From Lachnospiraceae bacterium (GTDB taxonomy: Bacteria; Bacillota; Clostridia; Lachnospirales; Lachnospiraceae), in the NCBI GenBank assembly GCA_017940415.1, contig JAGAYR010000022.1, forward strand, positions 1 through 64,000: DNA of 64,000 nt, given 5' to 3'. Of the stretch, positions 21,523 to 44,247 are shown in pieces; the first letter of the stretch is position 1, and the number at the start of each line of letters is the position of its first letter. A program made the translations under genes and the position numbers. The notes under the pieces were generated by a model. It did not search any database. It had not been told where the DNA came from and saw nothing but the letters and a program-made list of their open reading frames with translations.

Positions 21523-21826
21523 GGGGACGGTTCTGTCGTTCCAGAAAGATCATAAATGCGAGGTGTGGATATGCCTGATGTTTTTATGCTCATGATCACT
21601 TCGTTAAGCTGTTCTAATGAGCACGTATATATCAATGCTCCATCCGGCGTCGCTCACATTCGACTTCCATGTCTCATGTTCGCTGATTTTTCCGTCCTGG
21701 AAAAATCCCGCCTGATTATTTATGTGCTCATAAGAACAGCTAAACTCGTTCAAATGTCGCATAAAAACATCAGGCATATCCACACCTCGCTACAGGAGTT
21801 TTAGTCGGAACGACAGAACCGTCCCC
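21523..21826 (-). repeat. structured repeat element A (subtype 1)
   Basis: A 304-bp imperfect palindrome. The outer arms are a 20-mer (GGGGACGGTTCTGTCGTTCC, 21523-21542) and its exact complement (21807-21826). Inside is a perfect 28-bp stem (21558-21585 with 21763-21790). Then comes the conserved module: AGCTGTTCT and TGAGCAC pairing with GTGCTCA and AGAACAGCT around a 2x2 internal loop, flanked by GAACGAGTTT and AACGAAGTGATCATGAG in the loop opposite. Innermost are a hairpin with arms GATTTTTCC and GGAAAAATC and a second with GAC/GTC. Orientation is set by the order of these parts and is minus here. It fills the gap upstream of the ABC-F promoter and abuts element B. Short open frames in it are not conserved. 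Confidence 0.85.
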
Positions 21827-22104
21827 CTGCCGACTAATCAGAAATGACGTCTGAAAGGCATGGACATATGTATTTTTTCGGGCGATTTTGAACGAGTTTA
21901 GCTGTTCTTAGGGATGTATCCCGGTAAGCACAATTTTGCCCGGATGGCAAAATTAGCAGGCATGAGACATGGATGTCGAACGCCTGCGGTGCGTAGTCAT
22001 CGGAGTACATACATCCCTTAGAACAGCTTAACGAAGTGATCATGAGCCCGGAAAAATACATATGTCCATGCCTTCAGACGGGAAAGATATCAATCGGCAG
22101 GGGG
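21823..22104 (+). repeat. structured repeat element B (subtype 2)
   Basis: A 282-bp palindromic element in the opposite sense to A and sharing its edge: the left arm CCCCCTGCCGA (21823-21833) overlaps the end of A and pairs with TCGGCAGGGGG (22094-22104). The P1 stem joins 21852-21878 to 22052-22079. The conserved module is GAACGAGTTTAGCTGTTCTTA (21890-21910) against AGAACAGCTTAACGAAGTG (22020-22038). The two inner hairpins are AATTTTGCC/GGCAAAATT (21932-21954, loop CGGAT) and GCAGGC/GCCTGC (21956-21987), which encloses GACA-TGGA-TGTC. It lies just past the pfp terminator. Nothing else is seen in the gap 21433-22168. Confidence 0.85.
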
Positions 22105-22120
22105 ATATTCGGTGGGACAT

Positions 22121-22152
22121 AAAAAGGCCTCCGCGTGATGCGGAGGCCTTTG
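22121..22152 (-). terminator. terminator of pfp
   Basis: On the minus strand AAAGGCCTCCGC and GCGGAGGCCTTTTT form a 12-bp stem with a five-base loop and T run, directly after the pfp stop. Confidence 0.92.
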
Positions 22153-22168
22153 AGTGTTTGGTGTAGGA

Positions 22169-23428
22169 TTAGAGGAGTTCCTGGAAGCCCTTGACGTAAA
22201 GGTGTCTGGGAATACCGTCTACCATGATGGGAGCAACATCACCCTGGATAAGAGGTCTTACGTAGGTGACGAACTCGGAAGTTACATATGTGCCTTCCTT
22301 GGTGATCCAGTCTCTGGGAACAAGTCTCTCATCGTTAGCGATCTTGTGTACGTCCTTAACCTCGGTACCTGCCTGATAAGGATCGTCGGAAAGTCTCTTG
22401 AAGACTACCATCTTACCTGAATCGCCTTCGTCAGCTGCCTTCATTGCGGCACCGCCTACCTCGTAAGCTTCGAGGATATCGATTCTGGATGCGCAGTGAG
22501 AAGCTGCTCTCTGAAGAGTTGAAAGCTCAATCGCTCTGGTCTTACATCCGATCTCTTTTGCAACTACGTTGGCAAGATAGGTTGCGGTTCCGGTGAGCTG
22601 CTTGTGTCCGAAAGCATCGACATACTCAACACCGTCGGTCATCTCGGATACATACTTGCCTTCTGCGGTGCGGATACCTTCGGATACACACATAACGATG
22701 GACGCTTTGGTTTTAAGAAGTTCCTTACACTTATCGACGAAAGACTGAACATCGAAAGGAATCTCGGGAAGATAGATTGCATCGGGACCGTCGCAGTCCT
22801 CGCTCTTTGCAAGAACGGAAGCTCCGGTAAGCCATCCTGCGTTACGTCCCATGATCTCAACGATGACAACCTGGCCGTGTGCGGTCTCAAGGCTCCAGCC
22901 GTCGCGGATGATCTCTTTTACGGAAGTACCGATGTACTTCGCGGCAGAGCCGTATCCGGGAGTGTGGTCGGTAAGAGCGAGGTCGTTATCAATGGTCTTG
23001 GGGCATCCGACGAAACGGATCTCGGAGCCGGAAATTATAGCATAATCGGAAAGCTTCTTGATGGTATCCATCGAATCGTTTCCGCCGATGTAGATAAAGC
23101 AGTCGATCTCAAGTTCATCGAGCATCTTGAAAATCTTCTCATAAAGCTCTCTGTCCTCATTGATATTGGGAAGCTTATAACGGCATGAGCCGAGATATGC
23201 GGAAGGAGTTCTCTTTAAAAGTTCAGCATCAAGTCCGGTCTGGATGTGCTCTGAAAGGTCTACATATCTTCCTTCCATGAAGCCCTGAATACCGTGGATC
23301 ATACCATAAACCTTGGCATATCCTCTGTCCTTAGCGGTACGGAACACACCGGCAAGAGAGGAATTGATTGCGGCGGTAGGACCGCCGGACTGACCGACAA
23401 TAACATTTCGTTTCTTTGTTTTACCCAT
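22169..23428 (-). CDS. pfp: 6-phosphofructokinase, predicted PPi-dependent
   Basis: Phosphorylates fructose 6-phosphate. The 419 residues have the PFK nucleotide-binding start (GQSGGPTAAINSS), the substrate motif PKTIDNDLALTDHTPGYGSA and MGRNAGWL. The Lys in PKTIDND (ATP enzymes have Gly) and the GGND motif in place of GGDG mark the pyrophosphate-using branch in established family comparisons. The ATG at 23428 is used because AAGGAA lies a few bases upstream and the glycine-rich motif starts 12 residues later; the longer frame adds 41 unrelated residues. It is a single gene with its own -10 box and terminator. PPi use would match ppdK in this window, which consumes PPi in the PEP-to-pyruvate direction. 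Confidence 0.93.
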   Translation of the reverse strand: MGKTKKRNVIVGQSGGPTAAINSSLAGVFRTAKDRGYAKVYGMIHGIQGFMEGRYVDLSEHIQTGLDAELLKRTPSAYLGSCRYKLPNINEDRELYEKIFKMLDELEIDCFIYIGGNDSMDTIKKLSDYAIISGSEIRFVGCPKTIDNDLALTDHTPGYGSAAKYIGTSVKEIIRDGWSLETAHGQVVIVEIMGRNAGWLTGASVLAKSEDCDGPDAIYLPEIPFDVQSFVDKCKELLKTKASIVMCVSEGIRTAEGKYVSEMTDGVEYVDAFGHKQLTGTATYLANVVAKEIGCKTRAIELSTLQRAASHCASRIDILEAYEVGGAAMKAADEGDSGKMVVFKRLSDDPYQAGTEVKDVHKIANDERLVPRDWITKEGTYVTSEFVTYVRPLIQGDVAPIMVDGIPRHLYVKGFQELL

Positions 23429-23483
23429 TTTCATTTCCTTTCTCGAACTTGATATTTTTGAGGAAATACACCCCATGTGCAAC

Positions 23484-23489
23484 ATTATA
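23484..23489 (-). promoter_or_regulatory. -10 element of pfp promoter
   Basis: TATAAT on the minus strand, preceded by CTG, about 55 bases before the pfp start. The -35 region is poor (TGATTT at 17 bases). Confidence 0.5.
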
Positions 23490-23536
23490 CAGAATACGGC
23501 CTTAAAAATCACGAAATATTCTGAATATTTCCGCAC

Positions 23537-23576
23537 AAAAAAAGGGAGCATTTTCTGTGCGAAAATGCCCCCTTTT
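23537..23576 (-). terminator. terminator after the small membrane protein
   Basis: On the minus strand AAAGGGGGCATTTTC pairs with GAAAATGCTCCCTTT around GCACA and runs into seven T. It closes the gene ending at 23588. Confidence 0.92.
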
Positions 23577-23587
23577 ACCGTTTCTTA

Positions 23588-23905
23588 TCAGAGTTGAGAA
23601 AGTGCGGTTACGATAGCTGCACCAAAGACCGTCAAAACGATGATGATGATAACAAAAATGATAAGCATTGCAAGAAGATATGATCTGGCAAAATTCTTAA
23701 CATTCTTATTCTCGGGTGCAAATGCCATGATTATGGTGATAATGAATCCTACTAAAGGAAGAGCGAAAAGCAGCTCATATCCAAGGTATCCCCATACAGA
23801 AATAGGCTTGTATTCATCAGGAATCTGATTCTGATAATAATTGTTGTAGACGGGCTGCTGATAGGGCTGCTGATAGTTCTGATTGTTCATGTTATTGGAA
23901 TCCAT
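23588..23905 (-). CDS. small membrane protein with Gln/Asn/Tyr-rich N-terminus
   Basis: A 105-residue protein not assigned to a named family. Residues 1-33 are rich in Asn, Gln, Tyr and Pro and probably disordered. Two hydrophobic segments follow (about 38-62 and 74-102), separated by a charged loop (PENKNVKNFARS). The layout is like small membrane proteins common in Lachnospiraceae. It has its own promoter and strong terminator, so it is expressed as a single gene. The role is unknown. Confidence 0.8.
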   Translation of the reverse strand: MDSNNMNNQNYQQPYQQPVYNNYYQNQIPDEYKPISVWGYLGYELLFALPLVGFIITIIMAFAPENKNVKNFARSYLLAMLIIFVIIIIVLTVFGAAIVTALSQL

Positions 23906-23954
23906 TTTTAAATTCTCCTCTCAAGAATCAAAATCGGGTAAACCCGTAAATAAA

Positions 23955-23983
23955 AATATAACGACGGATATAAACCCCGTCAA
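23955..23983 (-). promoter_or_regulatory. promoter of the small membrane protein gene
   Basis: On the minus strand TTGACG (23983-23978) and TATATT (23960-23955) are 17 bases apart. The same stretch contains a nine-pair stem (ACGGATGTA with TATATCCGT) followed by a T-rich run that may be a weak terminator for the glycosylase gene upstream. Confidence 0.7.
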
Positions 23984-24001
23984 TACCATACATCCGTTGG
24001 T

Positions 24002-24838
24002 TTAAAGCTGTCCGCGATATGCAAAGATGTACTGCTGCATTATTCCATTGTAGGGATGATATTTTTCCAGCGGGAATGTACCGTCGTAATAAGTATCAAG
24101 GGCTCTTTGGATCCAGACATCTATGGGGAAAAGATCCAGTCTGTGAAATCCGAAAAGTGCGGTACAGTTTGCCACCTTCACTCCCACTCCTTTTAGAGAC
24201 ATCAGAGTGCCGATAAGCGCCTCATCATCCAGTCCGCTCAGATACTCTGCATCGAATTCTCCCCTTGCAAAAACCTCCGCCGTCTCATGAATGTAAGAAG
24301 CCCTGTATCCAAGTCCGCATGCAGATAGCTCATCGGAAGACAGTTTCTTAAGTTCATCCGGCGTGGGAAAATCATAGACATCGGTTCCGGGTATCTTACG
24401 CCCTGCGGTCTCGCATATCCTCTCCACACTCGTCTTGATGGCCGGAATACTTTTCCTCTGGGAAATGATAAACGTAATAAGAGTCTCGAAAGAATCCTGA
24501 TAAATGATCCTTATACCGGCTCCGCTTTCCGCTGCCTCGGATAAAAACTTATCCTTCTTGTCAGGCATCTTACGAATCTTAGAATAATCAAGACCTGCAT
24601 CAAAATATTTACTCCATATTTCCGCAAGAGACTTAGGATCAGTTTTCTTTTTCGGGGAAGACAATAATTCAAGATCAATTCCCCCACGGGCTTCGGACAC
24701 TTTCACCAGCATACCGAAAGCGGGGATGATAAATGCATCCCCGTCTTTGATCCATCTGAAGCATTGGCCCGACTTCTCTGTTTTATCAAGATCAATGCCG
24801 CCCTTCAGTTCAATGTAAAATTTTTCTACGGATTTCAT
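24002..24838 (-). CDS. 8-oxoguanine DNA glycosylase / AP lyase (OGG type)
   Basis: A bifunctional base-excision repair enzyme that removes 8-oxoguanine. The 278 residues contain an N-terminal OGG-like beta domain (GQCFRW near 24) and a helix-hairpin-helix/GPD domain. The motif SLKGVGVKVANC holds the catalytic Lys (near 222, equal to Lys249 of human OGG1), and the conserved Asp is in FPIDVWIQR. There is no C-terminal iron-sulfur cluster motif. It is preceded by the lipase-like gene with five bases between, so it is probably the last gene of that unit. Confidence 0.9.
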   Translation of the reverse strand: MKSVEKFYIELKGGIDLDKTEKSGQCFRWIKDGDAFIIPAFGMLVKVSEARGGIDLELLSSPKKKTDPKSLAEIWSKYFDAGLDYSKIRKMPDKKDKFLSEAAESGAGIRIIYQDSFETLITFIISQRKSIPAIKTSVERICETAGRKIPGTDVYDFPTPDELKKLSSDELSACGLGYRASYIHETAEVFARGEFDAEYLSGLDDEALIGTLMSLKGVGVKVANCTALFGFHRLDLFPIDVWIQRALDTYYDGTFPLEKYHPYNGIMQQYIFAYRGQL

Positions 24839-24843
24839 TTAGG

Positions 24844-26217
24844 TCAGAATCCTTTTCTCTTCAGATCTGCTACAAGCTGAACATAGAATTCCCTGACATC
24901 ATAGCCGGGAATGTTTTCACGGTTAAGATCAATGACATCACCGTGTGAGATACCTCTTTTGCCGGTCGGTTCTATCAGATGGAAATCACTTCCCCAGGGA
25001 AAAGACTTCTCTCCTACAAGACCGTCGTTTCTTCCGTCAAACGCATTTACAAGACCATAAGACATATTCAGAGGGAACTGTCCCCCACGATTATTCTTGA
25101 GATAAGAGCCGTAGCTCTGAATGTAAACACCCTGGGGATCTTTGACCCTCTCGTTAAACTCGGTGCAGAATTCATGAGTGAGATTTCTGCATGCAACTAT
25201 AAAATCAGGATTATAATCACCGAGTTTGGAAAGCGCCTTATTGTATGCCTTGGCAACAACCTGCTGAGGCTTTTCCGGAATCTTGTTAAGCAGATAGTCC
25301 GCAAACTCACACCCTCTGTGAGGAGTATTTATGGTTGTAAGAGATGCAACTCTTCTTGCGATATCGGGATCCGTCATGGCACTTCTCGCATCGAGTCCGC
25401 CCTTGGAATGTGCGATGATATTAACCTTCTCGCAACCTGTCATCTCGGTTATCTCTTTGATCTTACGGGCAACTTCAAGTCCGCAGGATTCAACAGATGC
25501 CGCAGACTGCTGCTCTCCGTAGAAGAAAGTACAGCCGTTTGCAAAAAGCTCTCCGGGTACACGTCCCCAATAATCGAAATACTTGAAGTCCCTGAAAAAG
25601 ACACCGTGGAGAAGAAGCACCGGATACTTGGTGGCACAGATCTTTTCATCTTTTCTCTGCTCGTTGAGAATATCCTTGTCATTCTCGAACTTAACCTCTT
25701 CCAGTGTGGTACGTATCATGATACCCAGGACAATCAGATTAAAAGGAAAAAGAAGACCGCAGAGAATTCCAATCACTCTCATCTTGATGCCAAGCTGAAC
25801 GCTTGTCAGGTAAATTCTGATAATACCTATCCAGAATGTGATTGACAGGAAAACTATGGCAATGACCGCATGTGATCCGAACTTTTTCCAGGGAAAATCT
25901 CCGCCTGCTCCGGCTACGTTTTTAAGCACCGCAAGCTCAAGTATCGTATACACGATGGTGATGACAAGCGATTCAAGAAAAACTCTCAGCTGAATGTTAC
26001 CGAACCAGAGCTGCTTTATCCTGCCGTCTCTGATGTCTTTGGTGCACGCTCCCGGCCACAGCCAAAAGAAAAAACACATGCACATAGCGACGATCATGAC
26101 TATGGAATCATAGGCTCCCGAGGCAAGCAGAAACACAGAGTTTGCGGCAAGAGTCAGCACAAACAAAAATAAAAGATGATAAATGATCCTGATTGTTGTA
26201 TGAATAGGATTTTTCAC
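24844..26217 (-). CDS. membrane-anchored lipase-like alpha/beta hydrolase
   Basis: A 457-residue protein with about five N-terminal membrane helices (about 10-185) and a C-terminal alpha/beta hydrolase domain (about 205-450). The start of the fold is PVLLLHGVFFRDF, and the nucleophile elbow is AHSKGG, of the lipase type GxSxG with Ala in the first place. The sequence TINTPHRG after it matches the TPHxG pattern of triacylglycerol lipases. A late Asp (NAFDGRNDGLV) and His (GISHGDVIDL) could complete the triad. The substrate is unknown. It starts one base after the stop of a small gene and is followed after five bases by the glycosylase. Confidence 0.85.
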   Translation of the reverse strand: MKNPIHTTIRIIYHLLFLFVLTLAANSVFLLASGAYDSIVMIVAMCMCFFFWLWPGACTKDIRDGRIKQLWFGNIQLRVFLESLVITIVYTILELAVLKNVAGAGGDFPWKKFGSHAVIAIVFLSITFWIGIIRIYLTSVQLGIKMRVIGILCGLLFPFNLIVLGIMIRTTLEEVKFENDKDILNEQRKDEKICATKYPVLLLHGVFFRDFKYFDYWGRVPGELFANGCTFFYGEQQSAASVESCGLEVARKIKEITEMTGCEKVNIIAHSKGGLDARSAMTDPDIARRVASLTTINTPHRGCEFADYLLNKIPEKPQQVVAKAYNKALSKLGDYNPDFIVACRNLTHEFCTEFNERVKDPQGVYIQSYGSYLKNNRGGQFPLNMSYGLVNAFDGRNDGLVGEKSFPWGSDFHLIEPTGKRGISHGDVIDLNRENIPGYDVREFYVQLVADLKRKGF

Positions 26218-26218
26218 T

Positions 26219-26509
26219 TTACTTCACTTCTTCATAACGCTCGAAGATCTTATCTTCACCGCAGACGTGCTTGGTGCCGTCCGAATCAACGATGATGTAA
26301 TCTCCCTCGCTTATGAAAGTCTTTCCCCTTCTGTGAGATATATAAGGGCACACAATGGAACCGTCGGGGCGTGTTACCTGAACCAGGTTACTCGCTACGA
26401 TCCAGGTCTTGGTAATGACGTCGCTGTAAAGCTCGTATCCGTCCTCCAATCCCTTTCCCAACTCAAACTTAAAAACATCAGCCTCAAGAGGTACTCTTCT
26501 GCACTTCAT
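26219..26509 (-). CDS. small protein of unknown function (PGD-type strand motif)
   Basis: A 96-residue acidic soluble protein. It has no signal peptide or membrane segment. The pattern with an early aromatic residue (TWIVASN), a Pro-Tyr-Ile-Ser segment and SEGDYIIVDSDGTKHVC resembles short phage-like or housekeeping proteins that carry an EGDWII-type motif, but no family can be named. It has a Shine-Dalgarno (AAAGGAG) just before the ATG and sits at the head of the lipase-glycosylase unit. Confidence 0.75.
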   Translation of the reverse strand: MKCRRVPLEADVFKFELGKGLEDGYELYSDVITKTWIVASNLVQVTRPDGSIVCPYISHRRGKTFISEGDYIIVDSDGTKHVCGEDKIFERYEEVK

Positions 26510-26573
26510 GTTTTGCTCCTTTCAGAGTCTGTTTACGGGGAACAAATGCCTGATATTATTATACCATTGTCAC

Positions 26574-27665
26574 TCAAAATAATACTTCAAAAAACTTTCC
26601 AACCTCTATCCAAGCCTTTTTGGATTCGGGTATTGCAGTATATGCCATCTGGAAAACATGGAACATGCCTTCGTATACGTGAAGTCTCACTTTTACTCCT
26701 TCATCGCGGGCTTTTGCAGCCACGACTTCCGAATCCGATAAAAGCATTTCATTTCCGCCCACCTGTATGAGCATGGGAGGGAAATCTTTGAAGCTTCCGA
26801 AAAGCGGTGATATATAAGGATCTGTTTTATCGTGGTCTCCGGGATAAGCGTTGATATAGATCAGACTTTCTCTGGTTCCGCCAAACAGGGGATCCTTGTC
26901 AAAATTCTCTTCATAGGATGCACCGGATGCCGTAAGATCCGTCCAGGGACTCATCGCAATAATTCCGCCGGGCATGGGCAAACCGTTGTCCCTGAGATAC
27001 ATGCAAAGAGCCATAGCAAGACCGCCTCCCGCACTGTCTCCGGCAACAACGATGTTCCCTGCTTTATAGCCTCTGGTAAGAAGCCACTTGTAAGAAGCCA
27101 CCGCATCTTCAAGAGCCGCGGGATAAGGATTTTCGGGTGCAACTCTGTAATCGGGGCATAGCACGTTCATGCCGTGACTTATCTCGTTGTAAAGCCCTGC
27201 AAACACATAGTATGCATTTCTGATGGCACCCATGTATCCGCCGCCGTGAAGCTGTAATATCACATGATCGAGATCCGGGTTTTCTTTGGAAGAAAGCATC
27301 TTCATGGAAAATCCGTCCATCTCAAAACTTGTTAGATTAAAAGGTTCGGGCACGTTCCAAGCGGGCTCTTTCATCTTCTTTCTGAGTTCACCCGTTTTAA
27401 GGCTCTTGCCCATCTTGGATTCGTTGGAGATATAAGAGATCATCCTGGAGACAACCTTACCGCGCTGTGATACGCCTGCTGCCTCGCTTTCCTCTTCAGC
27501 CTCATCCTCATCACTCAATTCATTCAGCTTTTCAGCTTCCTCTACGGCATCATCAGCATCAACAACCTCTTCAGGCGCCTCAGCCTCTTCGGCCTCATCC
27601 CCCATAGTAAGTTCCCTGTACTGACGTTCAAATATTTTTACCCAGTGATTTGAAAATAAAGCCAT
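26574..27665 (-). CDS. HSL-type alpha/beta hydrolase with acidic N-terminal insert
   Basis: An esterase of the hormone-sensitive lipase family, 363 residues, cytoplasmic. The oxyanion motif HGGGYMG is near 140, the nucleophile elbow GDSAGGG near 210, a likely acid residue follows (GGNEMLLSDSE) and the His is in GMFHVF. Between residues 20 and 66 lies an insert made almost wholly of Glu, Asp and Ala, unusual for the family and likely disordered. It starts on the last base of the stop of the DUF6320-like gene (TGATG) and is the third gene of an acyltransferase operon, so it may remove or edit the acyl group that the operon handles. The substrate is unknown. Confidence 0.88.
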   Translation of the reverse strand: MALFSNHWVKIFERQYRELTMGDEAEEAEAPEEVVDADDAVEEAEKLNELSDEDEAEEESEAAGVSQRGKVVSRMISYISNESKMGKSLKTGELRKKMKEPAWNVPEPFNLTSFEMDGFSMKMLSSKENPDLDHVILQLHGGGYMGAIRNAYYVFAGLYNEISHGMNVLCPDYRVAPENPYPAALEDAVASYKWLLTRGYKAGNIVVAGDSAGGGLAMALCMYLRDNGLPMPGGIIAMSPWTDLTASGASYEENFDKDPLFGGTRESLIYINAYPGDHDKTDPYISPLFGSFKDFPPMLIQVGGNEMLLSDSEVVAAKARDEGVKVRLHVYEGMFHVFQMAYTAIPESKKAWIEVGKFFEVLF

Positions 27666-29588: not shown

Positions 29589-29593
29589 GGTTA

Positions 29594-29857
29594 TTATCCT
29601 TCCACGATAAGGTATCTTCCGTCCCCAATCTCAAATACCTCATCTGCGCTTAATATATCCCCGGCTTCAGGGCTGTCAAGATCGACGCCCTCTTCTTCGA
29701 AATACTCCTTAACTTCATCTGCGGAATTCACGACCTGTGCCATGAGTTCCTCAAGGAAGTCTCTCGCTTCCTCCTTGGTAGTTGCAACTTCTTCGTCAAA
29801 TAACTGATTCTGGTTTTTCAGGAAAACTTCGAGAACTTTGTCATCATACATTTCCAT
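29594..29857 (-). CDS. small acidic protein, function unknown
   Basis: An 87-residue strongly acidic protein, mostly helical by pattern (KEEARDFLEELMAQVVNSADEVKEYFEEEG) with a short C-terminal strand region (DEVFEIGDGRYLIVEG). The ATG at 29857 follows GAGGGGG by seven bases; an upstream in-frame ATG lies inside the dihydrouridine synthase gene. It overlaps the end of that gene (29872) only if the longer start is used. No family was recognised. It may be co-transcribed with maf and dus upstream and the acyltransferase downstream. Confidence 0.75.
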   Translation of the reverse strand: MEMYDDKVLEVFLKNQNQLFDEEVATTKEEARDFLEELMAQVVNSADEVKEYFEEEGVDLDSPEAGDILSADEVFEIGDGRYLIVEG

Positions 29858-31451: not shown

Positions 31452-31474
31452 TTCAAAATCCTTCTTCGGTTACG

Positions 31475-31698
31475 GCTCCATGCAGGCCATGTATAATTTA
31501 ACGCTCATGCAGAATTCGCTAAGCTGTTCTAAGGGACGTATGTACTCCGATGACTTCGCACCGCAGGCATTCGACATCCTGTCTCAGTGCCTGCTAATTT
31601 CGCCGTCAGGGCGAAATTGTGCTTACCTTGATACATCCCTAAGAACAGCTAAGCTCATTCTAAAATCGCGTCAAATTATACATGGCCCACACAGAGCC
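31475..31698 (-). repeat. structured repeat element F (subtype 2)
   Basis: A shorter copy (about 224 bp) in minus sense. Outer arms GGCTC and GAGCC are followed by the P1 stem 31485-31504 with 31668-31687 (two mismatches in 20). Then come the module AAGCTGTTCT with AGGGACGTAT against ATACATCCCT with AGAACAGCTTAG, the hairpin AATTTCGCC/GGCGAAATT and GCAGGC/GCCTGC-type stem with GACA/TGTC. The flanking loop is altered (GAATTCGCTAAG in place of GATCACTTCGTTAAG). It lies directly upstream of maf. Confidence 0.8.
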
Positions 31699-31757: not shown

Positions 31758-31998
31758 AGCGCTACTTACGTAGTTATGATTATTTTCTGCGAATTTGTCC
31801 GAGCCTTACAGTTCTTGAAATGCGTTCTCCAGCGGAACGGTTTTGCCCGGATGGCAAAACCAGCTCGCCTGAGCAATGGATTGCGAATGCGAGCGGTGTA
31901 GCGTCAAGACCACGGAATAGGCTATTAATAGCATTTCATAGAACTGTATGGTGCAGGACGCATGAGCGGAAAACAATCATAACTACGTAAGGTCAGCG
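31758..31998 (+). repeat. structured repeat element G (diverged subtype 3)
   Basis: A diverged copy in plus sense that keeps the fold with different bases. P1 joins 31766-31786 to 31969-31990. The central stem is ACAGTTCT with GAAATGC against GCATTTC and AGAACTGT where other copies have AGCTGTTCT/AGAACAGCT. The first hairpin is GGTTTTGCC-CGGAT-GGCAAAACC, the second GCTCGC/GCGAGC enclosing GCAA-TGGA-TTGC (others GCAGGC/GCCTGC and GACA/TGTC). It ends nine bases from the ppk stop and may serve as its transcript end. The 70 bases between F and G contain possible back-to-back -10 boxes near 31712-31719. Confidence 0.75.
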
Positions 31999-36836: not shown

Positions 36837-36963
36837 TCCGGGGTACTCCTACATTTTTCTCATATATCACCCGGCAGGAAAAAACACTTTGCCCGATGAT
36901 ACCTTAACCAAGATATTTTACTCCGAAACTGCGGATTTTACAATGTTTTAAGGGTTCCGTGCC

Positions 36964-36993
36964 TTGATTTAAAGCGGTATACGGGGGTACAAT
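36964..36993 (+). promoter_or_regulatory. promoter of the DUF5050 gene
   Basis: TTGATT (36964-36969) and TACAAT (36988-36993) are 18 bases apart, about 37 bases before the start. The 36837-37029 gap holds nothing else clear. Confidence 0.6.
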
Positions 36994-37029
36994 ATTTTTG
37001 TATAAAGAAGTATTTCGAAGGGAGTAAAA

Positions 37030-38103: not shown

Positions 38104-38111
38104 TCGTTTAA

Positions 38112-38140
38112 AGGAGCTTGTTCATACAGGCTCCTTTTTT
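38112..38140 (+). terminator. terminator of the DUF5050 gene
   Basis: GGAGCTTG pairs with CAGGCTCC around TTCATA and is followed by six T. The 24-base hairpin 38112-38135 recurs as an exact inverted copy at 38469-38492. Confidence 0.9.
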
Positions 38141-38152
38141 GTTTCACTCACC

Positions 38153-38453
38153 GGGGACGGTTCTTTCCTGCTCCTCATAAAAAATGTCACCTCAAAAGGC
38201 GTGAACACATAAATGTTTTTCTGCGATTTTGAACGAGTTTAGCTGTTCTTGGGGATGTATCCCCGTAAGCACAATTTCACCCGGATGGTGAAATTAGCAG
38301 GCATGAGACATGGATGTCGAACGCCTGCGGTGCGAAGTCATCGCTGTACGTACATCCCCTAGAACAGCTTAACGAAGTGATCATGAGCGGAAAAAAATTT
38401 ATGTGTTTATGCCTTTGATGACATGCCCCAGAGAGCCGGCAAGAACCTTCCCC
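38153..38453 (+). repeat. structured repeat element C (subtype 2)
   Basis: The only unpaired copy, in plus sense, between convergent genes. Outer arms (38153-38176 and 38431-38453) pair with a few mismatches and carry GGGGACGGTTCTT. P1 pairs AACACATAAAT with ATTTATGTGTT and beyond. The module is GAACGAGTTTAGCTGTTCTTGGGGATGTA-like (from 38231) against TACATCCCCTAGAACAGCTTAACGAAGTGATCATGAG-like (to 38388), with hairpins AATTTCACC-CGGAT-GGTGAAATT (38273-38295) and GCAGGC/GCCTGC. Inverted copies of one terminator lie just outside it. Nothing else was seen in the gap 38104-38497. Confidence 0.85.
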
Positions 38454-38460
38454 AAGGCCG

Positions 38461-38492
38461 AAAAAAATAGGAGCCTGTATGAACAAGCTCCT
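38461..38492 (-). terminator. terminator of the ArsR/apbE unit
   Basis: On the minus strand the 24-base hairpin (arms AGGAGCTTG and CAGGCTCCT) is followed by ATTTTTTT. It is the exact inverted copy of the terminator at 38112-38135. Confidence 0.88.
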
Positions 38493-38497
38493 AAGTA

Positions 38498-38818
38498 TTA
38501 CTCTTCTATGTGGTCTATTCCGGTTGATAGGATGGTTGCGATGTGGTCATCGGCAAGGGAATAGTAGATTGTCTTGCCGTCTCGTCTTGCTTTTACGAGG
38601 TCCTGCTGCTTCAAAACCTTGAGCTGGTGAGATATGGCCGACTGCGTCATGGAAAGTGCCTCTGCAATGTCCATTACGCAAAGCTCACTCTGCTGAAGCG
38701 CAAGCATTATCTTAAGTCTGGTGATATCCCCGAACATCTTGAAGAAATCCGCAACGGAATCAAGTTCCTCATCGGGCGGAGTCGCATCGGATATCTTTTT
38801 AAGAATAGTCTTGTCCAT
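38498..38818 (-). CDS. ArsR/SmtB-family metal-responsive regulator
   Basis: A 106-residue winged-helix repressor. The recognition helix region is LSMTQSAISHQLKVLKQQDLV, the wing RRDGKTIYYSL. At the C-terminal helix the sequence DDHIATILSTGIDH lines up with the alpha-5 zinc/cobalt site of CzrA and SmtB: the Asp, the first His and the second His are kept, while the last His is replaced by Glu. The alpha-3 helix has ELCVMDI with a Cys-Val rather than the ELCVC arsenic motif. It is 11 bases after apbE. No metal transporter gene is in the window, so its target is elsewhere or is its own operon. Confidence 0.9.
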   Translation of the reverse strand: MDKTILKKISDATPPDEELDSVADFFKMFGDITRLKIMLALQQSELCVMDIAEALSMTQSAISHQLKVLKQQDLVKARRDGKTIYYSLADDHIATILSTGIDHIEE

Positions 38819-38829
38819 TTAAATTCCCC

Positions 38830-39897
38830 TTACTTAAACCTGAAGATCAATCTGTCTTCATCAGTAGCTATTATACCATCCGAGGTGATATACGTGCCAT
38901 CATTCATGATATAAATGACCTCCGCTCCGAACTTTTTCGCATATTCCAAGCCCATACCCGGCTCCAGTACAAAGCATGCGGTGGATAGCGCATCGGATAA
39001 AAATCCCTCATCAGCTATGACTGTTACGGACACAGGGTAAACATCCTTGTAGGGATAAGGAGAAGACAAAAAAACAGCAGGTATGGTCTGTCTGCGCTCT
39101 ATATCTTCGGGAGTCCATGCAGGATAGCCCGTGAAAGGATCAAGAATATGATGATACCTTACTCCGCCGGATTCAAAATACCGTTCGTAACTTCCGGATG
39201 TTGAAACAAAATGACATGCATTTAATTCGATCACTCCGAAAGGGGCATCCGAAGTCCCAAACGGATCTTTTATTCCGACTTTAAAAGGCGAACCGTCATC
39301 TTTAAAGCCATATACGAGAATACTGCCGCCGGCGCTTATAACAGCTCCGCTCACTCCTTTGTCATCAAGGATTTCTTTTACCAGATCCAGATAAATACCC
39401 TTTCCTACGCTTCCGAGATCGGTTACGGAATTATCTTCCATAGCATCGGCAATCAAGCTTTCGGATGGAAGGGAAAATTCGCTTTCTCCCTTAACCGCGC
39501 CTTCTATATTCCAAAGATCGCACAGCGCTCCTATATGAACATCAAAGGCTCCGAAAGACGAATCACGTATCTCATCGCATCTGTCCAGATATGTATTCAG
39601 ATCCACGGTGTGACCTTCTATATCATATTTCAGATCACCGGGATTTCCCGACATATAGGAACATATAAGAGACTGATCGGAAAAACGGGAAAGAACCTTT
39701 TCATCCAAAGACTGTCCGGCATTCAAAAGATCTGTAGGAGTCACTTCATTTCCATATACGGTCACGGTAAAAACCGTATCCATAACCAGTCCCGAACCGG
39801 TCATAGCCGTATTTTTCCCGCAGCCGGAAAGCATGCCGGCCATCAGAATACCGGTCAGAATTGTAGAAATGTATTTTTTTAATCTGCTGAAAAGCAC
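38830..39897 (-). CDS. apbE: FAD:protein FMN transferase, lipoprotein
   Basis: Attaches FMN to a Thr/Ser of extracytosolic redox proteins. The 355 residues start with a lipoprotein signal ending in LSGC (Cys near 26). The family motifs are MDTVFTVTVYG, DLGSVGKGIYLD (FAD-binding), SAGGSILVYG and HHILDPFTGYPA near 245. The start is GTG at 39897 with AAAGGA nine bases upstream. It is divergent from the NusG_II/Gx pair with only 38 bases between starts, so both directions probably share control. Confidence 0.93.
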   Translation of the reverse strand: MLFSRLKKYISTILTGILMAGMLSGCGKNTAMTGSGLVMDTVFTVTVYGNEVTPTDLLNAGQSLDEKVLSRFSDQSLICSYMSGNPGDLKYDIEGHTVDLNTYLDRCDEIRDSSFGAFDVHIGALCDLWNIEGAVKGESEFSLPSESLIADAMEDNSVTDLGSVGKGIYLDLVKEILDDKGVSGAVISAGGSILVYGFKDDGSPFKVGIKDPFGTSDAPFGVIELNACHFVSTSGSYERYFESGGVRYHHILDPFTGYPAWTPEDIERRQTIPAVFLSSPYPYKDVYPVSVTVIADEGFLSDALSTACFVLEPGMGLEYAKKFGAEVIYIMNDGTYITSDGIIATDEDRLIFRFK

Positions 39898-39935
39898 AGA
39901 ATGTATCCTTTCTTCAAACGTGATAAAATGCCATT

Positions 39936-40379
39936 ATGTCGATAAAGAAATCAAAACAAAATACCGCGCCCTTTATCATGACGGGGATACTGCTGATTCT
40001 TACTGCCCTGTCCGTGCTTTGGATCTTTATGGCCAAAACCGGTAAAGGCGAAAAAGTAGAAATCGTATCAAACGGTGTATGTGTATGGACGTGTGATCTT
40101 TCCGGGATAAACGGAGAACTTTTTCTTACCGTGATAAACGATCCGGCGGACGAAAACTCTCCTTATGTCATTGAAGGAAACATCCCTTCCGGAAGTCATT
40201 ACAATGTCATCCGTATAACAAGTGAAGGCGCATGTATCATAGATTCCGACTGTGCCACTCACATCTGCATTCACGAAGGCATCACATCATCGCCCTCAAA
40301 GCCTCTGGTATGTCTTCCCAACAAACTCCTGATAACCGTAACCGGAGAAAGCTCCGATACCGACGCCATAACTTATTAA
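39936..40379 (+). CDS. NusG domain II-containing membrane protein (EetA-like)
   Basis: A 147-residue protein: an N-terminal membrane helix (about 12-33) and an extracytosolic NusG domain II-like fold of about 100 residues. Its motifs are typical of the family: VCVWTCDLSG near 48, the Cys-containing segment IDSDCATHICIHEG near 103 and PLVCLPNKLLITV. This family is found beside ApbE and Gx membrane proteins and, in Listeria, in the extracellular electron transfer locus as EetA; that correspondence is from memory. No strong Shine-Dalgarno precedes the ATG. It is two bases from the start of the next gene. Confidence 0.82.
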   Translation: MSIKKSKQNTAPFIMTGILLILTALSVLWIFMAKTGKGEKVEIVSNGVCVWTCDLSGINGELFLTVINDPADENSPYVIEGNIPSGSHYNVIRITSEGACIIDSDCATHICIHEGITSSPSKPLVCLPNKLLITVTGESSDTDAITY

Positions 40380-40381
40380 GC

Positions 40382-40882
40382 ATGAAAAAAGACACCCGCA
40401 AAATCGTAACACTCGGACTTCTTGCAGCACTGTCTCTTGCGATATACGCATTTGAAAGTGTGCTTCCTCCGCTCCTTCCGATTCCCGGAATAAAGCCCGG
40501 ACTGTCCAATATCATCATCCTGTATGCATTAAAGAGATTCGGAAAAAAAGAAGCAGGATCAGTCCTGCTTGTGCGTCTCCTTCTCTCCGCCTTCCTCTTC
40601 GGAAATGCGATATCTTTACTTTATTCGGCAGCCGGAGGATTCATGGCTCTTCTTATCGAGATTGTCTGCGATAAGATCCTGTCCGGTAAAAACCTGCAGA
40701 TCACCGGAGCATTCGGCGGTCTGTTTCATAACATCTCACAGCTTCTTACAGCCATGATGATCATGCAGACTGCTGCAGTCATCTCCTATGCTCCGTATCT
40801 GTTCATAGCAGGTATAGTCACGGGACTCTTCACCGGATATGCAGCACATTTCCTGCTCAAGATAAAGATTCCCGAAACCTGA
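40382..40882 (+). CDS. Gx transporter family membrane protein (EetB-like)
   Basis: A 166-residue membrane protein with five or six helices, of the family formerly annotated as heptaprenyl diphosphate synthase component I and resembling ECF S-components. Typical pattern: PGIKPGLSNIIILYAL near 35 and GGFMALLIEI. The ATG at 40382 is right because the family begins with a short basic leader (MKKDTRK); the longer open frame runs through the preceding gene. The start is two bases after that gene's stop and has no clear ribosome site, so coupling is likely. Its stop directly abuts the stop of folBK on the other strand. Confidence 0.82.
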   Translation: MKKDTRKIVTLGLLAALSLAIYAFESVLPPLLPIPGIKPGLSNIIILYALKRFGKKEAGSVLLVRLLLSAFLFGNAISLLYSAAGGFMALLIEIVCDKILSGKNLQITGAFGGLFHNISQLLTAMMIMQTAAVISYAPYLFIAGIVTGLFTGYAAHFLLKIKIPET

Positions 40883-41734
40883 TCAGTTTTCTTTTTCCTT
40901 TAATTCGTTCAAAAGCTGTAAAACCGTTCTGTTAAACACCGGATGTCTGTAACCCGGTTCTATTTCGCATACGGGTTCAAGTACGAAGAACCTGTTCTGC
41001 ATATCTATGTGAGGTATCTGAAGAGAAGAATCTCCGTATACCAGATCGTCATAGAAAATAATATCGATATCGAGAGTTCTGGGTCCCCAGTGAATCTCTC
41101 TTACTCTGTTATGTTTTGCTTCTATACTCTGTGAAAAAACAAGAAGATCCTTGGGCTCGAGAATCGTTGAAACAGTGACAGCACAGTTAATGAACTTGGC
41201 CTGATCAGTGTATCCGTAAGGCTCCGTCTCAAGCATTCCCGACACTTTGATAACATTGGTCGCGGGATCTTCATCAAGTTCCGCGATAGCTTCTCTTATG
41301 TGCTTTTCCCTGTCTTCCATGTTGGATCCCAGGCTCAGCACTGCCTTGTGCCTGCTCATCCTGCGGACAACGGAAACATAATCAAATTCATGAGCAATGG
41401 GAGCTTCGGGCTTTTTGATCTCAACAAGTACCGAAGACAGCAGAGAATATTTCAAAAGAATACTCTTACTGAGTTCCTCTGCAGCTGTTTCGATAAGCTT
41501 GAAGGTATTCTCCGTAAGAAACGACACAATATGATCGCACATATCGGCATAGTTGGTGGTGAGCATAAGTTCATCCATGCTCGCCGCAGCCTTTATGTCC
41601 TGATACGCATCAACGCATACATAGAAGTTCTGACCTTTTTCGGTCTCTTCGGGAAGTACACCGTGGTGTCCGAAAACCTTCAGATCTCTGATCCTTATGA
41701 GAGAGTAATCTTTGTCATTTATCTCCTGTGCCAT
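40883..41734 (-). CDS. folBK: dihydroneopterin aldolase / HPPK fusion
   Basis: Two steps of folate synthesis in one chain of 283 residues. The N-terminal FolB domain (about 10-125) shows LKVFGHHGVLPEE with its active-site Glu and a Lys near 106 (EIKKP). The C-terminal FolK domain (about 130-282) begins LSLGSNMEDRE and has WGPRTLDIDI, the pyrophosphokinase signature. The start overlaps the end of folP by 20 bases with GGAAGGA upstream. It is the last gene of the folE-folP-folBK operon. Fusion of these two activities is common in Firmicutes. Confidence 0.94.
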   Translation of the reverse strand: MAQEINDKDYSLIRIRDLKVFGHHGVLPEETEKGQNFYVCVDAYQDIKAAASMDELMLTTNYADMCDHIVSFLTENTFKLIETAAEELSKSILLKYSLLSSVLVEIKKPEAPIAHEFDYVSVVRRMSRHKAVLSLGSNMEDREKHIREAIAELDEDPATNVIKVSGMLETEPYGYTDQAKFINCAVTVSTILEPKDLLVFSQSIEAKHNRVREIHWGPRTLDIDIIFYDDLVYGDSSLQIPHIDMQNRFFVLEPVCEIEPGYRHPVFNRTVLQLLNELKEKEN

Positions 41735-42527
41735 ACATTATTCCTTCCGTCATACGAATGGCCATTGCGTTCATTTTAACATTGTGAACTCTGACAAATC
41801 TTGCTCCTGCCTGAGCTGACATAACGGAGATTGCGCAGGTGGCAGGATCTCCCTCGGCAGGCTTGATACCGAGTGTCTTGAATATAACGGATTTTCTGCT
41901 TGCTCCCACCAGTATGGGATATCCCATGTTGGTGAAATCGGAAAGATGTCTTATTACTTCCAGATTCTGCTCAAGTGTTTTACCGAAGCCGATACCGGGA
42001 TCGAGAATGATACGGTCTTTTCTTACACCGGCCTCAAGTGCGATCCTTACGGACTCTCCGAGTTCTCTTGCAACATCAGTGATCAGATCACCGTAAAATG
42101 TGTCATCGCTGTTATGCATCAGCACGCATAAAGCTCCGTACTCTGCGGCAATCTTAGCCATCTGAGGATCCTGTCTGAAGCCCCAGATATCGTTGATGAT
42201 ATCGGCACCTGCATCAAGTGCTTTCTTAGCAACGGATGCTTTGTATGTATCGACGGAAATAGGGATATTGAGATATTTCCTGATCTCTTTAATGACAGGA
42301 ATTACTCTGTCCGCTTCCTCATCGGCATCAACGGGGGTATAACCGGGTCTGGTGGACTCACCGCCGATATCGATGATATCAACTCCCTCGGAAACCATTT
42401 CTTCGGCTCTTCTGAGAGCACTGTTTAAATCTGTATAGCTGCCACCGTCGGAAAAAGAATCCGGAGTGACATTCAAGATTCCCATTATATATGTCTTATG
42501 GGGATCACCGAAATTTGAAATATCCAT
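41715..42527 (-). CDS. folP: dihydropteroate synthase
   Basis: Joins p-aminobenzoate to hydroxymethyl-dihydropterin pyrophosphate; the target of sulfonamides. The 270 residues form a TIM barrel with the two signatures GILNVTPDSFSDGG and DIGGESTRPGYTPV, and DPGIGFGKT in the pterin pocket. The Ser/Arg segment GASRKSVIFKTLG is also present. It starts four bases after folE and overlaps folBK. Confidence 0.95.
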   Translation of the reverse strand: MDISNFGDPHKTYIMGILNVTPDSFSDGGSYTDLNSALRRAEEMVSEGVDIIDIGGESTRPGYTPVDADEEADRVIPVIKEIRKYLNIPISVDTYKASVAKKALDAGADIINDIWGFRQDPQMAKIAAEYGALCVLMHNSDDTFYGDLITDVARELGESVRIALEAGVRKDRIILDPGIGFGKTLEQNLEVIRHLSDFTNMGYPILVGASRKSVIFKTLGIKPAEGDPATCAISVMSAQAGARFVRVHNVKMNAMAIRMTEGIMYGTGDK

Positions 42528-42531
42528 CTTA

Positions 42532-43098
42532 TCAATTACCGCCCTGTGTCATTAATGCTAAATATCTGTCCGTAAGCGCTGCATCCTCTGCAAACACGCC
42601 CCTTGTAGCTATGGTAAGGGTACGGCTTCCGGGCTTTTTGATGCCTCTCATGGTCATGCAAGTATGCTCCGCATCAAGCACAACCAAAACTCCCTTAGGA
42701 TCGAGAGCTTCCTCAATGGCATCCGCGATCTGCATGGTCATATGTTCCTGAATCTGAAGGCGTCTTGCATAGATCTCGACGCATCTGGCAAGCTTGCTTA
42801 TACCCACAACTTTTCCGTTGGGAATATATGCGATATGCGCCTTGCCGAAGAAAGGGAGCATATGATGTTCGCACATCGAATAAAAGGTTATGTCTTTTTC
42901 AATAACCGGTGAATCTTCCTCTACGGTAAAGAAAGTATTGAGGACATCTTCGGGCTTCTTAGCATAACCCGCCATTATCTCCTCATACATACGTCCTATC
43001 CTGTCGGGGGTAGCCTTAAGGCCCTCTCTGTCCGGATCTTCACCGATAGCTTCTATGATAAGCTTTGCAGCTTCTTTTATTTTATCCTGATCGATCAT
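42532..43098 (-). CDS. folE: GTP cyclohydrolase I
   Basis: First step of folate synthesis, GTP to dihydroneopterin triphosphate. The 188 residues have the zinc ligands in MCEHHMLPF (Cys and His) and a second Cys in [10 protein letters not shown], with the GTP-binding patterns TPDRIGRM and [16 protein letters not shown]. The ATG at 43098 is used because the family starts here; an earlier TTG in the same frame lies within the neighbouring gene. Its beginning overlaps the 3' end of the PH-domain gene (43115) only if the longer frame is taken. Confidence 0.95.
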
Positions 43099-43114
43099 TT
43101 TTTCTGCCGTAAGA

Positions 43115-43513
43115 TCACTGAAGATCAATATCGTCAACGTCGCCTACATCACCTGATCCGATGTCGAGCATGTTAACGGTACGTCTCTTGATCCTTGCCT
43201 CCTCGGAAGTCTTAAGGAGGTAATTCTTTATCTCCTCGGAATTTTTGATATGCTTTAATACAAGCTCTTTGTCGGTAGTATCACCGGTATAGCAGGTGAT
43301 GGTGCCGAGTCCGCAAATTCTCTCCATAAATGTCTGGGTAAGCTTTACGTCAACGATCTTGTACATGTAACAGTCATCCTGAACAAGCTTGAAAAAGCCG
43401 CTTTTTACGTTAAGCATGTCTTCTTTCATGCGATAAACCGTAAATGTCCAGGGAAGGCCGAGGAACAAAAGGCGCTTTCTCTCAACGTGATCATATCCTT
43501 CAGTCTGTTTCAT
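43115..43513 (-). CDS. PH-domain protein (bacterial PH, YdbS/YdbT-like)
   Basis: A 132-residue soluble protein that fits the bacterial PH domain: strands in [53 protein letters not shown], then TITCYTGD and a final helix ([17 protein letters not shown]). The pattern after the middle (short strand, DV, then a fixed Gly-x-Gly and a helix at the end) is that of YdbT-type domains, but membrane helices are absent. GGAGG precedes the ATG by six bases. It is the first gene of the folate unit; a link to folate is not evident. Confidence 0.8.
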
Positions 43514-43672
43514 AATTATCCTCCATACCGTGAAAAAAATACGTACCGCTATATTTTATCATCTTACCCAACCGTTTTCCAATTATTTATACAGTCCATC
43601 CAACCGGGCCGGTTCCTGCTGACTCCCACCGTTTCCAAGTAAGGCATGGATATGCCCGTCCAAAGGCCCGGT

Positions 43673-43951
43673 CCCGCCGATTCCAATATACTGTACGCCC
43701 GGAGGTACCGGCATAGGTGTTTTTCTAAGCTCGTGATCACTTCGTTAAGCTGTTCTAAGGGATGTATGTACAGCAATGACTTCGCACCGCAGGCGTTCGA
43801 CATCCATGTCTCATGCCTGCTAATTTCACCGTCCTGGTGAAATTGTGCTTATGGGGATACATCCCTAAGAACAGCTAAACTCGTTCAAAATCGCTAAGAA
43901 AAACACCTATGCCGGTACCCCACTGGCGTTATTGTCTATAAGTACGGCGGG
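43673..43951 (-). repeat. structured repeat element D (subtype 2)
   Basis: A 279-bp copy in minus sense. Outer arms CCCGCCG (43673-43679) and CGGCGGG (43945-43951) flank a perfect 21-bp P1 stem (43704-43724 with 43899-43919). The module is AAGCTGTTCTAAGGGATGTA-like (from 43746) against ATACATCCCTAAGAACAGCT (43858-43877), hairpin AATTTCACC/GGTGAAATT (43822-43844, loop GTCCT), and GCAGGC/GCCTGC enclosing GACA/TGTC. It abuts element E and lies upstream of the PH/folate operon. Confidence 0.85.
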
Positions 43952-44247
43952 ACGGTTTCTGCCGGCTCATAAAACCTCGGATGCAAGGTGTGGGTATGCC
44001 TGCTGTTTTATGCGACATTTGAACGAGTTTAGCTGTTCTTATGAACACATAATAAACAAGGCGGGATTTTTCCCGGATGGAAAAATCAGCGAACATGAGA
44101 CAGGGAAGTCGAATGTGAGCGACGCCGAATGAAAGAATATACTATGCGTGTTCATTAGAACAGCTTAACGAAGTGGTCATGAGCAGAAAACAGCAGGCAT
44201 ATCCATACATTGCGCTGAAGCTGAAACAGTCGGCAGGAACCGTCCCC
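43949..44247 (+). repeat. structured repeat element E (subtype 1)
   Basis: A 299-bp copy in plus sense sharing its left edge with D. Outer arms GGGACGGTTTCTGCCG (43949-43964) and CGGCAGGAACCGTCCC (44231-44246) pair with one bulge. P1 holds GGTATGCCTGCTGTTTT-like arms. The module matches A, with TGAACAC/GTGTTCA where A has TGAGCAC/GTGCTCA: a compensatory pair change. GGCG and CGCC close the inner multiloop. It ends 62 bases before the lipid kinase start; no clear promoter was seen in those 62 bases, so E is probably transcribed in that leader. Nothing else is seen in the gap 43514-44308. Confidence 0.85.

What the first reader, a model, noticed from the sequence alone, without database searches (positions are those of the whole stretch)
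21523..44247. A family of seven structured intergenic elements with compensatory base changes
Seven copies (21523-21826, 21823-22104, 31475-31698, 31758-31998, 38153-38453, 43673-43951, 43949-44247) share one fold: outer stem P1, an asymmetric internal loop with GAACGAGTTT opposite AACGAAGTGATCATGAG, stem P2 (AGCTGTTCT/AGAACAGCT, then a TA/TT internal loop), an inner multiloop and two hairpins. Stem bases vary but pairing is kept: first hairpin AATTTTGCC/GGCAAAATT, AATTTCACC/GGTGAAATT, GATTTTTCC/GGAAAAATC, GGTTTTGCC/GGCAAAACC; second GACA/TGTC or GCAA/TTGC; closing stem GCAC/GTGC or GGCG/CGCC; P2 TGAGCAC/GTGCTCA or TGAACAC/GTGTTCA. Loop CGGAT, AGGAC or CTGAC and TGGA-type loops are kept. This is what selection on an RNA (or extruded DNA) structure would leave. 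I do not recognise it as a named class.
Basis: partly seen in the sequence, partly recalled or inferred. Interest (0 to 1): 0.9.

Follow-up and report, generated by a model that had tools for sequence, protein, structure and literature searches.

The report
TwoAYGGAY hairpins inside mobile DNA palindromes
The seven look-alike structures are copies of a known but unexplained bacterial RNA motif, and copies of that motif turn out to sit inside small mobile DNA palindromes found mostly in bacteria that also have the RNA-binding regulator CsrA, whose preferred binding hairpins they resemble.

Summary
The seven elements are real, structured and covarying, but the class is named: Rfam TwoAYGGAY (RF01731). 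Six of seven exceed its cut-off; the seventh scores 41.2 against 43. What I add: (1) The motif is the centre of a larger mobile palindrome. 119 of 122 copies examined lie in outer inverted repeats beyond the Rfam model. One syntenic relative lacks e1/e2. In four related genomes the elements show terminal inverted repeats, a 7-bp target duplication (9 of 33 exact; none exact at the other lengths tested) and core-less derivatives. (2) The stem covariation lacks an RNA signature: G-U and A-C mismatches are about equally common. (3) Loops keep GGA on one strand (201 GGA, 1 TCC), resembling CsrA's preferred site, and the motif co-occurs with CsrA (44 of 45 carriers, 110 of 254 others), also outside the family (25 of 30, 86 of 345), uncorrected for phylogeny. 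Best reading: non-autonomous transposable elements carrying a two-hairpin, CsrA-site-like cargo. Transcription, CsrA binding and the transposase are not shown.

The parts
21593..21755 (-). e1, TwoAYGGAY core
   Evidence: RF01731 73.4 bits, cut-off 43
21886..22042 (+). e2, TwoAYGGAY core
   Evidence: RF01731 68.8 bits
31508..31664 (-). e3, TwoAYGGAY core; hairpin 1 loop has no GGA (CTGAC)
   Evidence: RF01731 65.6 bits
31796..31959 (+). e4, divergent TwoAYGGAY core
   Evidence: RF01731 41.2 bits, E 2.3e-5, just under the cut-off of 43
38227..38383 (+). e5, TwoAYGGAY core
   Evidence: RF01731 66.4 bits
43734..43890 (-). e6, TwoAYGGAY core
   Evidence: RF01731 75.1 bits
44017..44179 (+). e7, TwoAYGGAY core
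   Evidence: RF01731 71.3 bits
21558..21790 (.). outer palindrome of e1, arms 21558-21589 and 21759-21790, 100% complementary
   Evidence: pair I13
21855..22074 (.). outer palindrome of e2, arms 21855-21883 and 22046-22074, 97%
   Evidence: pair I19
31474..31698 (.). palindrome of e3, arms 31474-31541 and 31631-31698, 78% (includes the core helix)
   Evidence: pair I8
31765..31991 (.). outer palindrome of e4, arms 31765-31800 and 31956-31991, 83%
   Evidence: pair I15
43704..43919 (.). outer palindrome of e6, arms 43704-43730 and 43893-43919, 96%
   Evidence: pair I21
43983..44213 (.). outer palindrome of e7, arms 43983-44013 and 44183-44213, 87%
   Evidence: pair I20
38112..38492 (.). e5 flanks: terminator-like hairpin 38112-38143 recurs inverted at 38461-38492 (94%), so the palindrome reaches into flanking sequence
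   Evidence: pair I16
21523..21542 (+). REP-like end GGGGACGGTTCTGTCGTTCC of e1; exact inverted partner at 21807-21826
   Evidence: same kind of end
38153..38171 (+). REP-like end GGGGACGGTTCTTTCCTGC of e5; degenerate inverted partner at 38433-38452
44227..44246 (-). REP-like end of e7, GGGACGGTTCCTGCCGACTG on the minus strand; partner 43949-43968 on the plus strand

Best explanation
The elements are non-autonomous mobile palindromes (MITE-like, in this genus with REP-like ends), and the TwoAYGGAY motif is their conserved central cargo. Shown here: Rfam membership, outer inverted repeats, multi-copy and patchy distribution, one syntenic locus without e1/e2, terminal inverted repeats with 7-bp target duplications and core-less derivatives in related genomes, strand-specific GGA loops, and co-occurrence with CsrA. 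Inferred: a transposase supplied in trans moves the whole palindrome; its arms stay self-complementary through DNA-level processes (hairpin extrusion and template switching) more than through RNA selection on each copy; the core is transcribed and its two hairpins bind a CsrA dimer, so that each insertion adds a small CsrA decoy or a CsrA site in a transcript.
For: Family. Mobility: patchy and multi-copy, 45 of 299 family genomes including the own one (43 over the cut-off), at most 9 hits scored per genome; 119 of 122 copies with flanks, from a set of 124 in 31 genomes taken from the listed hits, in outer inverted repeats scoring above the shuffled maximum; arms match within a copy (mean 0.83) but in 11 of 17 genomes hardly between copies (0.59-0.68; random 0.56); syntenic relative L042 lacks e1/e2; ends of the type GATTCRGGTGTCAAAAGG, derivatives of 87-181 bp, and 7-bp target duplications in 9 of 33 exact (8 of the 22 full-length ones) and 14 of 33 with at most one mismatch, with no exact match at 3-6 or 8-10 bp; end hairpins without core in the own genome; of 11 RAYT-type loci in relatives, 4 (G116, G083, G190, G252) have GGGGACGGT palindromes beside the gene and 8 the shorter GGGACGG. 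DNA-like stems: G-U about equal to A-C; one copy with an inverted hairpin loop (L255). CsrA: GGA in 33 of 39 loops of each hairpin, GGA 201 and TCC 1, GGA in 137 of 164 element loops and 14 of 132 control loops; reported CsrA preference RUACARGGAUGU, mostly six-base loops closed by AC/GU (passages of PMC7652899); CsrA co-occurrence.
Against: No transposase was found: no Y1 transposase in the own genome, no positive association with it (21 of 45 carriers, 153 of 254 others, p 0.10), and none of 14 inspected G176 stretches showed an autonomous element by its ends. The 7-bp duplication was tested only in G176, G122, G060 and G042, not for the window's copies. No transcription evidence. CsrA co-occurrence is not corrected for phylogeny, and FliW co-occurs almost as well (42 of 45, 107 of 254), so a general link to flagellated lineages would also explain it. 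Carriers without a CsrA hit: G168 in the family sample; G472, G513, G552, G570, G612 in the class sample. Some cores lack GGA in one or both loops. CsrA's SELEX ligands mostly had four or fewer contiguous pairs, whereas these stems are long. Against neutral decay of single copies: in 16 G176 copies the core stems diverge less (0.012-0.022 per site) than the left arm (0.047) and the ends (0.07-0.11), though copies were found with a core probe.
Confidence: 0.6

Rival explanations
1. Dispersed chromosomal CsrA-sequestering sRNA genes (the Gardner and Eldai proposal): each copy is a functional sRNA kept by RNA-level selection, and the copies multiplied by ordinary duplication.
For: GGA hairpin pairs, strand-specific; CsrA co-occurrence; core less diverged than arms in 16 G176 copies; proposal in PMC4333381 (passages).
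Against: Terminal repeats, 7-bp target duplications and core-less derivatives; no G-U excess; hypervariable arms; no promoter or transcript shown.
Confidence: 0.2
2. A purely DNA-level element: the hairpins are recognised as single-stranded or cruciform DNA by a transposase, GGA loops are its contact points, and CsrA co-occurrence reflects shared lineages.
For: G-U about equal to A-C; RAYT-type palindromes at the ends in this genus; loop inversion in L255; FliW co-occurs nearly as well as CsrA.
Against: Core-less derivatives share the ends, so the core may not be needed for movement; Y1 transposases do not co-occur; the CsrA association recurs outside the family.
Confidence: 0.2
3. Covariation without selection: template switching at quasi-palindromes copies mutations between arms, and the fold has no function.
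For: Few one-side changes, hypervariable self-complementary arms, G-U about equal to A-C.
Against: Loops cannot be kept by arm-to-arm copying, yet GGA is kept on one strand (201 GGA, 1 TCC), and the motif is found in several bacterial families.
Confidence: 0.07
4. A cis-regulatory RNA (the Rfam type label) acting on the neighbouring gene.
For: Rfam type Cis-reg; position between genes in the window.
Against: Among 62 codirectional sites the element runs with the genes in 29 and against them in 33.
Confidence: 0.03

Closest known systems
TwoAYGGAY RNA, Rfam RF01731 (Weinberg et al. 2010)
   Same: Same model over full length (positions 1-168), two GGA hairpins in a multiloop on a long helix.
   Different: The literature seen here (7 papers hold the word, 5 listed, passages read in 3) showed no mobile context, outer palindrome or target duplication.
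MITEs (bacterial miniature inverted-repeat transposable elements)
   Same: Short, no long gene of their own, multi-copy, terminal inverted repeats, direct target duplication and deletion derivatives in G176, G122, G060 and G042 taken together.
   Different: Carry a conserved structured core with strand-specific loops; arms vary between copies in many genomes; no autonomous partner found.
REPINs and REP sequences moved by RAYT transposases
   Same: Own-genome elements end in inverted GGGGACGGTTCTT-type hairpins; such pairs also occur without core; 4 of 11 RAYT-type loci in relatives have GGGGACGGT beside the gene.
   Different: No Y1 transposase in the own genome; a 7-bp target duplication, seen in the GATTC-ended group, does not fit RAYT movement as I recall it.
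CsrB/RsmY-type CsrA-binding sRNAs
   Same: Paired GGA hairpins close to the CsrA SELEX consensus.
   Different: Only two hairpins, long stems, dispersed and mobile copies, no transcript known to me.

Membership tests
TwoAYGGAY RF01731 | score at or above the gathering cut-off of 43 bits | tested here: met
   6 of 7 window copies 65.6-75.1 bits; the seventh 41.2, just under
TwoAYGGAY RF01731 | two hairpins with AYGGAY-type loops | tested here: met
   GGA in 33 of 39 loops of each hairpin in an alignment with all seven (counted by eye); e3 lacks it in hairpin 1
MITE | terminal inverted repeats | tested here: met
   119 of 122 copies have outer inverted repeats; sequence-conserved ends in G176, G122 and G060, diverged in G042
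MITE | target-site duplication of fixed length | tested here: met
   7 bp, 9 of 33 exact, in G176, G122, G060, G042; not tested for the window's own copies
MITE | autonomous transposon with the same ends | tested here: not met
   not found in 14 G176 stretches; it may exist elsewhere
MITE | empty orthologous site | tested here: met
   one locus, L042 against the window between phosphofructokinase and the ABC transporter gene; two other relatives carry a different element there
REPIN/RAYT | inverted pair of REP-like hairpins | tested here: met
   not all window copies show both ends
REPIN/RAYT | RAYT (Y1) gene in the genome | tested here: not met
   0 hits in G000, 84% complete; 2 in congener G116
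CsrA-binding RNA | GGA in hairpin loops resembling the SELEX site | tested here: met
CsrA-binding RNA | CsrA encoded in the same genome | tested here: met
   own genome one CsrA; 44 of 45 carriers; 25 of 30 outside the family
CsrA-binding RNA | transcribed and bound by CsrA | not testable with these tools
   no expression or binding data
HEARO or IS605-linked omega RNA | match to the Rfam models at their cut-offs | tested here: not met
   the window scan lists only RF01731

The most novel reading that the evidence does not exclude
Selfish palindromic transposons that travel as CsrA decoys: each insertion adds a two-site CsrA-binding RNA, so transposon copy number tunes the global regulator CsrA in FliW-containing Clostridia, giving these bacteria both protein and RNA antagonists of CsrA.
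Probability: 0.25. Interest if true: 0.78.

Novelty: new variant of a known kind. Interest (0 to 1): 0.55.

Why it matters
A curated RNA family of unknown function appears to be the cargo of transposable DNA palindromes, so covariation alone was a weak guide to RNA function here. The strong link to CsrA makes a published proposal, for which I saw no test in the held library, directly testable. It also bears on a question that a 2020 review calls undetermined, whether FliW and sRNAs act together on CsrA in any species (passages).

Tried and rejected
HEARO, omega RNA and IS605-linked RNAs: no Rfam match at cut-off. Cis-regulation: no orientation bias. RAYT as the general mover: absent from the own assembly and not associated. 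Autonomous partner of the GATTC-ended elements: not found in 14 stretches. Copies on plasmids or phages: one element tried in each collection, no match. The other palindromic element in L040, L041 and L124: no Rfam match. A tRNA control for G-U (42 of 652 pairs in 30 distinct tRNAs, no non-standard pair) is weak because ARAGORN decides the pairs. In one search the row labelled GGA1 fell on the wrong GGA and is replaced by the loop rows of the same call and. Literature: the searches listed no paper that I recognised as describing TwoAYGGAY mobility; papers outside the held library, and all supplements, were not seen. A phylogeny-corrected co-occurrence test was not done.
Full report
What was checked. 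Rfam names them: six reach the gathering score of TwoAYGGAY, RF01731, at 65.6 to 75.1 bits against 43, and the seventh, 31796-31959, has 41.2 bits and E 2.3e-5 when scanned alone. The assembly (2.69 Mb, 48 contigs, 84% complete) holds three more over the cut-off. Seven of ten known copies therefore lie in about 23 kb, as three head-to-head pairs and one single copy.

Covariation. A 39-sequence alignment (all seven plus 32 relatives) has 87.2% of cells paired and 330 cells changed on both sides, against 103.5 in shuffles and at most 131 in slid controls. One-side changes are few. By hand, G-U cells number 23 and A-C cells 29 of 1042. Counting mismatches with symmetric scoring over 124 elements gave G-U and A-C counts of 250 and 275 in the outer arms (7122 columns, 122 elements with flanks), 45 and 39 in the core helix (3544 columns), and 3 and 9 in the hairpins with GGA (1968 columns); other mismatches number 638, 313 and 128. 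RNA selection on each copy should favour G-U over A-C. It does not show, so the palindromes look as if kept, or decaying, as DNA. The copies are not independent of each other. A tRNA control from the same loci had 42 G-U of 652 pairs, with the caveat that ARAGORN chooses the pairs.

The element is larger than the Rfam model. I assembled 124 elements from 31 genomes (10 from the own genome, the rest from the hits listed, which lists the best and not all). In 119 of 122 with flanks, the sequences beyond the model form an inverted repeat scoring above the maximum of shuffled controls; the median aligned arm was 62 nt of 90 searched. The three that do not are G168_C18_235, G031_C9_37730 and G060_C40_82358. 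Over 34 nt, arms agree within a copy (mean 0.83) but in 11 of the 17 genomes with three or more copies scarcely between copies (0.59 to 0.68 in the own genome, G143, G241, G037, G086, G157, G115, G288, G004, G008 and G208; random 0.56), while cores agree at 0.66 to 0.83 there. In the other six, G176, G066, G122, G042, G268 and G060, the arms are more alike between copies (0.73 to 0.94).

Mobility. The family-wide scan found the motif in 45 of 299 genomes including the own one (43 over the cut-off), in several at the nine-hit limit of that scan, and several copies lie at contig ends. Between phosphofructokinase and the ABC transporter gene, relative L042 has a short intergenic region without element where the window has e1 and e2; L040 and L041 have a different palindromic element there. 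Four genomes were examined for ends. G176, G122 and G060 carry the 18-nt end GATTNRGGTGTCAAAAGG; G176 has 69 sites (31 forward, 38 reverse) with at most one mismatch, against 0 for the reversed control pattern; G042 has only diverged forms and no hit in that search. Paired ends enclose either 303-316 bp (22 of 33 insertions; the TwoAYGGAY core was read or matched in these) or shorter interiors: 87, 103, 105, 106, 159 and 181 bp in G176 and 135 bp in G122 keep the arms but lack all or most of the core, and others (38, 92, 121, 193 bp) have other or unexamined interiors. Of the 33 distinct insertions, 9 show an exact 7-bp direct duplication (8 of the 22 full-length ones; G176, G122 and G042) and 14 have at most one mismatch; no exact duplication was seen at 3-6 or 8-10 bp; mean identity at 7 bp is 0.684, with a maximum of 0.511 in 200 re-pairings. 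That is a transposition signature. No autonomous element turned up in 14 further G176 stretches.

Ends in the window's genus are different: inverted hairpins of the type GAGTCAGC-GGGACGGTTCTT-GCTGACTC, in several copies degenerate, which also occur in the own genome without a core. Of 11 RAYT-type loci printed from relatives, 4 (G116, G083, G190, G252) have GGGGACGGT beside the gene and 8 the shorter GGGACGG. The own assembly has no Y1 transposase and Y1 transposases are not associated with the motif (21 of 45 carriers, 153 of 254 others). I did not demonstrate a target duplication for the window's own copies.

Function of the core. Hairpin loops carry GGA in 33 of 39 sequences for each hairpin (counted by eye). 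Over 124 elements, hairpin loops with GGA number 201 and with TCC 1. With a stricter perfect-stem rule, 137 of 164 loops hold GGA (23 of 124 elements gave no hairpin under that rule), against 14 of 132 control loops from hairpins of 8 or more pairs elsewhere in the same loci, both strands read. One G176 copy of 16, L255, has hairpin 1's loop inverted, so inversion happens but is not common in the family. The published CsrA consensus is RUACARGGAUGU, mostly in six-base loops closed by AC/GU (passages), and Gardner and Eldai proposed TwoAYGGAY as a CsrA-binding sRNA (passages). I tested a prediction of that: CsrA is present in 44 of 45 carriers and 110 of 254 non-carriers in the family sample (Fisher p 1.7e-13), and in 25 of 30 carriers and 86 of 345 non-carriers outside the family (p 2.7e-10). 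Of those 30 carriers 21 are over the Rfam cut-off. FliW gives 42 of 45 and 107 of 254, so the flagellar lineage confound stays; G023 and G143 have CsrA but no FliW match. No correction for phylogeny was made.

Selection. Loop conservation on one strand points to selection on the lineage of elements. Whether single copies are also under selection is open: the stems' mismatch types look neutral, but in 16 G176 copies the core stems diverge less (0.012 to 0.022 per site) than the left arm (0.047) and the ends (0.07 to 0.11), the right arm being at 0.018; these copies were found with a core probe, which favours intact cores.

Context. Element orientation shows no preference: of 62 codirectional gene pairs, 29 with and 33 against; convergent sites number 34 and divergent 18, 114 elements placed of 124; by mechanical ORF calls of 80 or more codons 35 of 124 overlap an open frame. 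Among pairs closer than 500 bp in the listed hits, a hand count gives 8 divergent (three in the window, two in G008, one each in G037, G208, G472), 2 tandem (G166, and G515 below the cut-off) and none convergent; I cannot explain this.

Judgement. New here, as far as I could see, are the mobile-palindrome context, the DNA-like mismatch pattern and the CsrA co-occurrence. The CsrA step and transcription remain inference.

Noticed in passing
L040, L041 (downstream of the phosphofructokinase gene) and L124 near position 1500: A different palindromic intergenic element with a hairpin like GGCCTGAACGAAGTGAATGGCC; in L040 and L041 it sits at the site where the window has TwoAYGGAY elements; no Rfam match.
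   Followed up: partly
window 38112-38143 and 38461-38492: A terminator-like hairpin, loop included, is repeated in inverted orientation on both sides of e5, as if flanking sequence had been duplicated inversely.
   Followed up: no
window 21523-44247: Seven of ten known genome copies lie within about 23 kb, as three head-to-head pairs plus one; the e1/e2 pair resembles the e6/e7 pair turned around (pairs I1 and I3).
   Followed up: partly
L255 (G176 C3): Hairpin 1 loop is inverted (TCC instead of GGA) inside an otherwise intact stem, a possible trace of strand switching at a palindrome.
   Followed up: yes
L120 and L123 (G000 C40, C19): Inverted pairs of GAGTCAGC-GGGACGGTTCTT-type hairpins without TwoAYGGAY core, REPIN-like.
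   Followed up: partly
L144, L160, L189, L195 (G143): Copies sit within about 350 bases of contig ends, two within 2 bases, so these repeats may break assemblies and copy numbers in draft genomes may be underestimates.
   Followed up: no
L300, L313 (G176): Further AT-rich inverted repeats (GCAATTGCCTA type) beside the GATTC-ended elements, perhaps another miniature element family.
   Followed up: no
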